DNA of 64,000 nucleotides. Source: Halorubrum sp. CSM-61 (lineage in GTDB: Archaea; Halobacteriota; Halobacteria; Halobacteriales; Haloferacaceae). Shown here piece by piece: positions 26,090-33,355 of the stretch (position 1 is its first letter; every line of letters begins with the position of its first letter). Location of the stretch: positions 2,098-66,097 of the forward strand of contig NZ_RJJW01000009.1 of the NCBI RefSeq assembly GCF_003781945.1, given 5' to 3'. Position numbers and translations under genes: made by a program. The notes below the pieces were generated by a model. It did no database searches. It saw only the letters and a program-made list of their open reading frames with translations, and had not been told where the DNA came from.

Positions 26090-26237
26090 CGGGCGTCGGT
26101 ACGCCGGGCGGCGGCTTGTAGCTGTGGGAACGGGCGGCACGCTCGTCGGAACCGTGGCAGCGTCGACTCGCGCCGGCGACCCCCAAGAGCCAACCCCCTC
26201 CGGAACCCACGCTTCGACGACTCACCGTCGCCCAACC

Positions 26238-27107
26238 ATGCGCTCGTTTCCACCCCTCCCCGACGTTCGCGGCTCGCAGGGCACAGAGGACCTCCTCACG
26301 GGTCACCTCTGGCTCCTCGAACTGATCGACGGGACGGGGCTCCGCTTCCGGATGGACGAGTCCGGTCTCCTCCGCTTCGGCGACCCCGAAACAACGTACG
26401 CGGACCCGGACGCGGTTCCGGTCGCGCTCCGGCCCGCCGTCAGGCGCGTTCGGGAGCGGTTCGACCGCGAGGCCTTCCGGGACGCTGTCGACGACCCCGA
26501 GGCGGTGGTCTTCTTCGGCGTCGCCACCCACCACCGGGGGACCGACTACGACTGGGACCGGCTCCCGGCGTTCCTCGGGACCGACGTGTGGGCGGGAGCG
26601 GGAGACGGAGCGTTCCGCCCGCCCGACGCCGCCGGGGCCGCCTTCGAGGGCATCGGGCTCGACGCGGTGAACGCGATCGAGCGCGAGGTGAACGCCCGCG
26701 ACTTCGATCCGTACGAGTACGCCGTCCCCGAGTCCGTGTGGCGCGACGGCCCGGCCGCCGGGGTCGTCGTGCGCAACAAGCGCGGGGGGCGGGGGAAGAT
26801 CCCCGCGGAGGATGCGGTGACCGACGCGGGCGAGGACGGTCCAGACGGCGACCGCGACGCCCCGGAGCTCGACGACCCCGAGACGATCGCCGCGACGTAC
26901 GCCACCGGTGGACGGATCGAGCGCGTCGTCGCGGACCTCGATCGCCGGGGCGAGGGATCGACCGTCGACGCGGTCGCCGACCGGGTCGTCGAGTCGATCG
27001 CGAGGGAGACGCCCGTTCGGTTCGGGGCCGGCGGCGGGAGCGCGGACCCGGATCGGGTTCGCGTCGCGGTCGTCGAGCGGGCGCGAGCCGCGCTCGCCGA
27101 GCAGTAG
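26238..27107 (+). CDS. RNA-ligase-like nucleotidyltransferase with the catalytic residues replaced
   Basis: A 289-residue protein whose layout follows the haloarchaeal RNA ligase (PF09414-like) family: LWLLELIDGTGLRFR (motif I region), VVFFGVATHH (motif III), LPAFLGTDVW (IIIa) and AAGVVVRNKRGGRGKI (IV). The residues that should act are changed: the KxDG lysine is Leu29, the motif III Glu is Val95 and the motif IV Glu is Ala174. The scaffold around each is intact. I infer a protein that keeps the fold but cannot form the enzyme-AMP intermediate, perhaps an RNA-binding or regulatory derivative. It is divergent from the dehydrogenase and 96 bp before gyrB. Confidence 0.72.
   Translation: MRSFPPLPDVRGSQGTEDLLTGHLWLLELIDGTGLRFRMDESGLLRFGDPETTYADPDAVPVALRPAVRRVRERFDREAFRDAVDDPEAVVFFGVATHHRGTDYDWDRLPAFLGTDVWAGAGDGAFRPPDAAGAAFEGIGLDAVNAIEREVNARDFDPYEYAVPESVWRDGPAAGVVVRNKRGGRGKIPAEDAVTDAGEDGPDGDRDAPELDDPETIAATYATGGRIERVVADLDRRGEGSTVDAVADRVVESIARETPVRFGAGGGSADPDRVRVAVVERARAALAEQ

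Positions 27108-33355
<6,248 letters not shown>

What the first reader, a model, noticed from the sequence alone, without database searches (positions are those of the whole stretch)
26238..27107. RNA-ligase-like protein with three catalytic positions lost but the fold preserved
Leu29 stands where the AMP-accepting Lys belongs (LELIDGTG), Val95 where the motif III Glu belongs (FFGVATHH) and Ala174 where the motif IV Glu belongs (AAGVVVRN). Flanking residues remain typical. Loss of all three but nothing else suggests deliberate conversion to a non-catalytic protein rather than decay. Its position right before gyrBA and its intact reading frame argue that it is expressed.
Basis: partly seen in the sequence, partly recalled or inferred. 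Interest (0 to 1): 0.6.

Follow-up and report, generated by a model that had tools for sequence, protein, structure and literature searches.

The report
Catalytically dead haloarchaeal RNA-ligase family
This gene encodes a protein with the complete shape of an enzyme that rejoins broken RNA, but the residues that do the chemistry have been replaced; the same has happened across a wide clade of salt-loving archaea whose closest cousins still look active, so the protein probably works without joining RNA.

Summary
ORF 26238-27107 (+) encodes a 289-aa protein. Aligned with intact relatives and viral ligases, Leu29, Val95 and Ala174 sit at the motif I Lys, motif III Glu and motif IV Glu of Rnl2-type RNA ligases. 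AlphaFold gives a confident model (pLDDT 91.7), and Foldseek's best PDB matches are RNA ligases. This is not one broken gene: in a pan-haloarchaeal family (208 of 391 class genomes), 109 distinct members comprise 29 with K/E/E intact, 11 partly eroded and 69 with all three lost. All viral relatives and long paralogues checked keep the catalytic residues, so loss is derived. Of 23 positions shared by intact ligases, only these four are erased. Frames stay open, dN/dS is about 0.1-0.3, and an upstream element is conserved in Halorubrum, so this looks like maintained function rather than simple decay. Best reading: a ligase-derived pseudoenzyme, probably an RNA-end or nick binder; RNA binding is inferred, not shown. 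The gyrB adjacency is Halorubrum-specific and not evidence of expression. The genome holds no other Rnl2/Rnl3-type ligase, only RtcB.

The parts
26238..27107 (+). Pseudo RNA ligase, 289 aa
   Evidence: Open frame; homologues with the same start; AF2 pLDDT 91.7, pTM 0.89; Foldseek to RNA ligases
26301..26312 (+). Family signature G22-H23-L24-W25
   Evidence: G, H and W 100% in the 69 triple-lost members and 97-100% in KEE members; at most 12% in outgroup and viral ligases
26322..26324 (+). L29, position of the motif I nucleophile Lys (T4 Rnl2 K35)
   Evidence: K in all 29 KEE members and all 16 outgroup and viral ligases
26385..26387 (+).
   Evidence: R in 97% of KEE, 100% of outgroup and viral, 100% of intermediates, 28% of triple-lost members
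26520..26522 (+). V95, position of the motif III Glu (T4 Rnl2 E99)
   Evidence: E in all KEE, outgroup and viral ligases
26757..26759 (+). A174, position of the motif IV Glu
   Evidence: E in all KEE, outgroup and viral ligases
26796..26798 (+). K187, motif V Lys (aligned with T4 Rnl2 K225), retained here
   Evidence: K in all 16 outgroup and viral ligases; K/V/R mixture in the family sample
26865..27104 (+). Helical C-terminal domain with the YxTxxR element (Y221, T223, R226)
   Evidence: Helices 214-288 in the model; weak match to the T4 Rnl2 C-terminal domain (E 0.13 for A1, 0.014 for A2); T223 70% and R226 81% retained in triple-lost members
26182..26196 (+). Conserved upstream element CCCAAGAGCCAACCC, probable promoter or regulatory site
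   Evidence: Present exactly or nearly in 17 of 18 aligned Halorubrum upstream regions, including L022 with a different upstream neighbour; only exact match in the window and extended form single in the genome;

Best explanation
The gene encodes a pseudoenzyme descended from an intact Rnl2-type ATP-dependent RNA ligase of haloarchaea. It keeps the nucleotidyltransferase fold and helical C-terminal domain but can neither form the lysyl-adenylate nor, very probably, carry out the later steps, because motif I Lys, motif Ia Arg, motif III Glu and motif IV Glu are gone. Shown here by computation: fold, homology, specific erasure of those residues, a graded series of intermediates, purifying selection and clade-wide maintenance. 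Inferred: the surviving function is non-catalytic recognition of RNA (ends or nicks) or of a partner protein, through the conserved family-specific residues (GHxW, P61, R77, E150, K181, R256, R275) and the C-terminal domain. It probably shields, marks or delivers RNA ends for other factors such as nucleases or RtcB, because the genome holds no paralogous Rnl2/Rnl3-type ligase that it could regulate.
For: AF2 pLDDT 91.7. Foldseek hits at E<=0.001 are RNA or tRNA ligases: T4 Rnl2, Pab1020, TbREL1, Naegleria Rnl, T4 Rnl1, fungal Trl1, plus one Aquifex entry titled putative DNA ligase. Relatives L044, L046, L037, L039 pass the PF09414 cut-off. Among 109 distinct members: 29 KEE, 11 intermediate, 69 triple-lost. 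All 10 viral and 6 long haloarchaeal ligases have K/R/E/E/K. Of 23 ligase-universal positions only K29, R50, E95 and E174 are erased; the others are 70-100% retained, and family-specific GHxW/P61/R77/E150/K181/R256 are 94-100% retained. dN/dS of triple-lost pairs: NG86 0.16-0.47, YN00 0.11-0.34. Conserved upstream element. Own genome: no PF09414 or TIGR01209 match, RtcB present. PMC3149579 assigns K35, R55, E99 and motif V Lys of T4 Rnl2 to AMP attachment, ribose contacts and 5'-phosphate recognition.
Against: No experiment shows expression, RNA binding or absence of activity. The gene is patchy (about half of the class; 62 of 116 relatives), one Halorubrum copy (G018) lies in three frame pieces, and one copy (G033:C81) has a stop in the matched stretch, so it is dispensable. 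Selection looks somewhat weaker than in intact relatives. Rapid substitution in some lost branches fits relaxed constraint.
Confidence: 0.68

Rival explanations
1. Slow decay: ligase activity became unnecessary, the active site is drifting, and the protein is a relic kept only for a while, with no function.
For: Patchy presence, a frame-broken copy in G018, repeated erosion in many lineages, somewhat higher dN/dS than KEE pairs.
Against: 69 triple-lost members with open frames over long branches; dN/dS well under 1; non-catalytic family positions 94-100% conserved; conserved upstream element.
Confidence: 0.15
2. Partial enzyme: it no longer adenylates itself but joins pre-adenylated RNA ends (step 3) or removes AMP from them.
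For: Motif I Lys mutant K97A of MthRnl keeps step 3 (PMC3514331). K187 is still present. HEA/MEA members have lost K but keep the motif III Glu.
Against: Motif Ia Arg and both Glu are also gone here; motif V Lys is not conserved in the clade. K lost with both Glu kept, the pattern expected of a dedicated step-3 ligase, was not seen in 109 members.
Confidence: 0.09
3. Nucleotide sensor: the old ATP pocket binds a nucleotide without chemistry and the C-terminal domain reports it.
For: Fold and D31, G32, R36 largely retained.
Against: Ribose- and phosphate-contacting residues (E99, R55 equivalents) are replaced by Val and Pro, and the motif I Lys mostly by Leu, which suggests a closed pocket (inference).
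Confidence: 0.06
4. The protein is not a ligase relative and the motif match is chance.
For: No Pfam or NCBIfam match of the protein itself; TM-scores to solved ligases are only about 0.5.
Against: Orthologues at about 45% identity with PF09414 matches and K/E/E; Foldseek list made up of ligases.
Confidence: 0.02

Closest known systems
Haloarchaeal 'RNA ligase family protein' with intact motifs (e.g. Haloterrigena turkmenica WP_012945014.1, K/E/E)
   Same: Same family, length and start, same C-terminal domain, GHxW signature
   Different: Intact motifs I, Ia, III, IV; the window protein has L, P, V, A there
T4 RNA ligase 2 (Rnl2)
   Same: Fold (2hvq E 6.5e-8, TM about 0.5); motif positions; a C-terminal YxTxxR element
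   Different: Catalytic residues lost; about 12-14% identity in the structural alignment
HGTV-1 gene 217, RNA ligase of a halovirus (AGM11514.1)
   Same: Homologue of the family, 31% identity to an intact member; PMC8651126 reports two Rnl2-family ligases in this virus
   Different: Keeps K/R/E/E
Rnl3 archaeal ligase (Pab1020, MthRnl, TIGR01209)
   Same: Foldseek hit 2vug E 9.8e-8; weak motif I alignment with the A2 profile
   Different: No TIGR01209 match for the window protein or in its genome

Membership tests
Rnl2-type ATP-dependent RNA ligase (active enzyme) | Motif I Lys that accepts AMP | tested here: not met
   L29; no adjacent Lys
Rnl2-type ATP-dependent RNA ligase (active enzyme) | Motif Ia Arg (R55 in T4 Rnl2) | tested here: not met
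   P50
Rnl2-type ATP-dependent RNA ligase (active enzyme) | Motif III Glu and motif IV Glu | tested here: not met
   V95 and A174
Rnl2-type ATP-dependent RNA ligase (active enzyme) | Motif V first Lys | tested here: met
   K187 present here, not conserved in the clade
Rnl2-type ATP-dependent RNA ligase (fold and ancestry) | Nucleotidyltransferase ligase fold | tested here: met
   AF2 plus Foldseek
Rnl2-type ATP-dependent RNA ligase (fold and ancestry) | Helical C-terminal domain of Rnl2 | tested here: inconclusive
   Helices and YxTxxR present; hhalign E 0.014-0.13
Pfam PF09414 RNA_ligase | Score above the curated cut-off | tested here: not met
   No match for the window protein; 12 of 41 aligned members match at E<=0.01 and four tested members pass the cut-off
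Rnl3 (TIGR01209) | NCBIfam cut-off | tested here: not met
Any RNA ligase | RNA joining or adenylation activity | not testable with these tools
   Needs biochemistry

The most novel reading that the evidence does not exclude
Ligases of viral type were taken up by haloarchaea and then repeatedly stripped of catalysis to become host RNA-end binders that compete with virus-encoded Rnl2 ligases (as in HGTV-1) and so block viral repair of cleaved tRNA: a dominant-negative antiviral pseudo-ligase. The direction of transfer and the antiviral role were not tested.
Probability: 0.07. Interest if true: 0.85.

Novelty: new variant of a known kind. Interest (0 to 1): 0.55.

Why it matters
Pseudoenzymes are well documented among kinases and proteases (own knowledge); three searches of the held paper library found no description of a pseudo RNA ligase. 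Here a natural series from intact (K/R/E/E) through partly eroded to fully dead members exists within one order, with well-supported separate erosions, so the order of loss and the function that remains can be tested directly. It also corrects annotation: dead members are called hypothetical, and those labelled 'RNA ligase family protein' should be checked for the triad first.

Tried and rejected
Operon with gyrBA: adjacency is limited to Halorubrum plus one gyrA-side case, and gyrB has its own TATA-like box; rejected. Conserved neighbours outside Halorubrum: among 66 loci no neighbour family recurred in more than 5, apart from two clusters that are antisense ORFs of the gene itself. Partner ligase in the same genome: none of Rnl2 or Rnl3 type; the long paralogue gives full-length matches in only about 30 of 391 genomes. 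Direct sequence link to solved ligases: none significant; only weak profile hits to Pab1020 (E 0.023) and the T4 Rnl2 C-terminal domain. Single versus several losses of K29: the best tree with all 72 K-less rows together is 54 log units worse but p-AU = 0.12, so one loss of K is not formally rejected; separate losses of the two Glu rest on well-supported clades. Literature searches for pseudo RNA ligases returned nothing relevant.

Full report
Observation. The reading frame 26238-27107 (+) is open and encodes 289 aa. The protein has no Pfam or NCBIfam match of its own, so the ligase claim had to be tested through relatives. A search of 116 related genomes found 62 with homologues, and a profile search of 391 genomes of the class found 208. 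Beyond the order the family is nearly absent (one further genome in a sample of 295 of the phylum). Several relatives (L044, L046, L039, L037) pass the PF09414 RNA_ligase cut-off with E down to 9e-18. A longer haloarchaeal ligase with intact motifs matches the window protein directly at E 6.6e-6.

The catalytic positions. In the intermediates the motif IV Glu is gone in 9 of 11, the motif I Lys in 3, the motif III Glu in 3 and the motif Ia Arg in none; K lost with both Glu kept was not seen. The order suggested is Glu(IV), then Lys and Glu(III), then Arg. Viral relatives from IMG/VR and the halovirus HGTV-1 and six long haloarchaeal paralogues all have K/R/E/E/K, so the intact state is taken as ancestral. 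By alignment and the published roles of T4 Rnl2 residues K35, R55, E99, K225 and K227 (PMC3149579), the window protein lacks the equivalents of K35, R55, E99 and the motif IV Glu and keeps that of K225.

Specificity of the loss. At 23 positions conserved in intact members and in outgroup or viral ligases, only K29, R50, E95 and E174 are erased in triple-lost members; the other 19 are retained at 70-100%. Family-specific positions rare in outgroup ligases (G22, H23, W25, P61, R77, E150, K181, R256) are retained at 94-100%. Some other family positions (H66, S111, H190, P191, L262) are lost. The pattern is focused on the active site and conservative elsewhere. The triad was used to define the group, so its zero retention is by definition; the loss of Arg50 and the retention of the others are not.

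Fold. AlphaFold2 on the 41-row family alignment gives pLDDT 91.7 and pTM 0.89. The 38 Foldseek matches at E<=0.001 are RNA or tRNA ligases, led by T4 Rnl2 (E 3.2e-8 and 6.5e-8) and Pab1020 (E 9.8e-8), except that one Aquifex protein is titled putative DNA ligase. TM-scores are about 0.44-0.51, perhaps because the two domains sit differently, so fold class is secure and detailed geometry is not. The C-terminal helical domain resembles that of T4 Rnl2 only weakly by sequence.

Maintenance or decay. dN/dS of triple-lost pairs is 0.16-0.47 by NG86 and 0.11-0.34 by YN00, against 0.08-0.23 and 0.09-0.23 for intact pairs. Codon bias at high G+C limits precision. Frames are open in nearly all copies; G018 holds a copy in three frame pieces and G033:C81 one with a stop in the matched stretch. 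In Halorubrum an element CCCAAGAGCCAACCC lies about 42-56 bases before the start codon in nearly all species while the surrounding intergenic DNA has diverged. It is kept in L022, where the upstream neighbour differs, and its extended form occurs once in the genome. This is better evidence of expression than the gyrB adjacency, which only Halorubrum shows apart from one gyrA-side case.

Phylogeny. A tree without the triad columns, rooted on the long paralogues, places K/E/E members near the base and nests most lost members in one 72-row group that still contains two K/E/E rows (94/97 support). Counts of irreversible losses on it are 9 (K29), 11 (E95) and 10 (E174). Well-supported separate events include E95 loss in L118/L123 and E174 loss in L119 inside a 100/100 clade with intact members, and loss of both Glu in L037 inside a 100/98 clade with intact members. 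A single loss of K29 is not formally rejected (p-AU 0.12), and several branches are long.

Context. The window genome has no PF09414 or TIGR01209 ligase; RtcB is present. The pseudo-ligase therefore does not act on a paralogue of its own kind. Motif I Lys mutants of MthRnl still perform step 3 (PMC3514331), so a step-3-only enzyme had to be considered; the loss of Arg and both Glu makes it unlikely.

Conclusion. The finding is a ligase-derived pseudoenzyme belonging to a clade of dead members inside a haloarchaeal ligase family. That catalysis is lost is very likely from sequence (about 0.9). That the surviving role is RNA-end or nick binding is an inference (about 0.5). No wet evidence exists.

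Noticed in passing
window 27204-30833: GyrB is 1209 aa and looks intein-split, with a stretch inside resembling an XRE-type helix-turn-helix. In most Halorubrum relatives (e.g. L002, L004-L008) the gyrB-gyrA start distance is about 1.9 kb, too short for it; in L003 and L009 it looks longer.
   Followed up: no
L125:4126-6081; also G273:C19 and L110: A short K/E/E ligase of this family lies directly beside a long (357-aa type) intact RNA ligase in G280 and G273, and within 5 kb in G279; HGTV-1 is reported to carry two Rnl2-family ligases. Possibly a two-ligase unit.
   Followed up: partly
L072 (G018): Halorubrum copy of the pseudo-ligase split over three frame pieces: a decayed copy.
   Followed up: partly
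window 26182-26196: Element CCCAAGAGCCAACCC conserved upstream of the gene throughout the main Halorubrum clade.
   Followed up: partly
L166, L169: RefSeq starts for the Haloferax gibbonsii and Natronomonas pharaonis members appear too late, cutting off the N-terminal motif region.
   Followed up: partly
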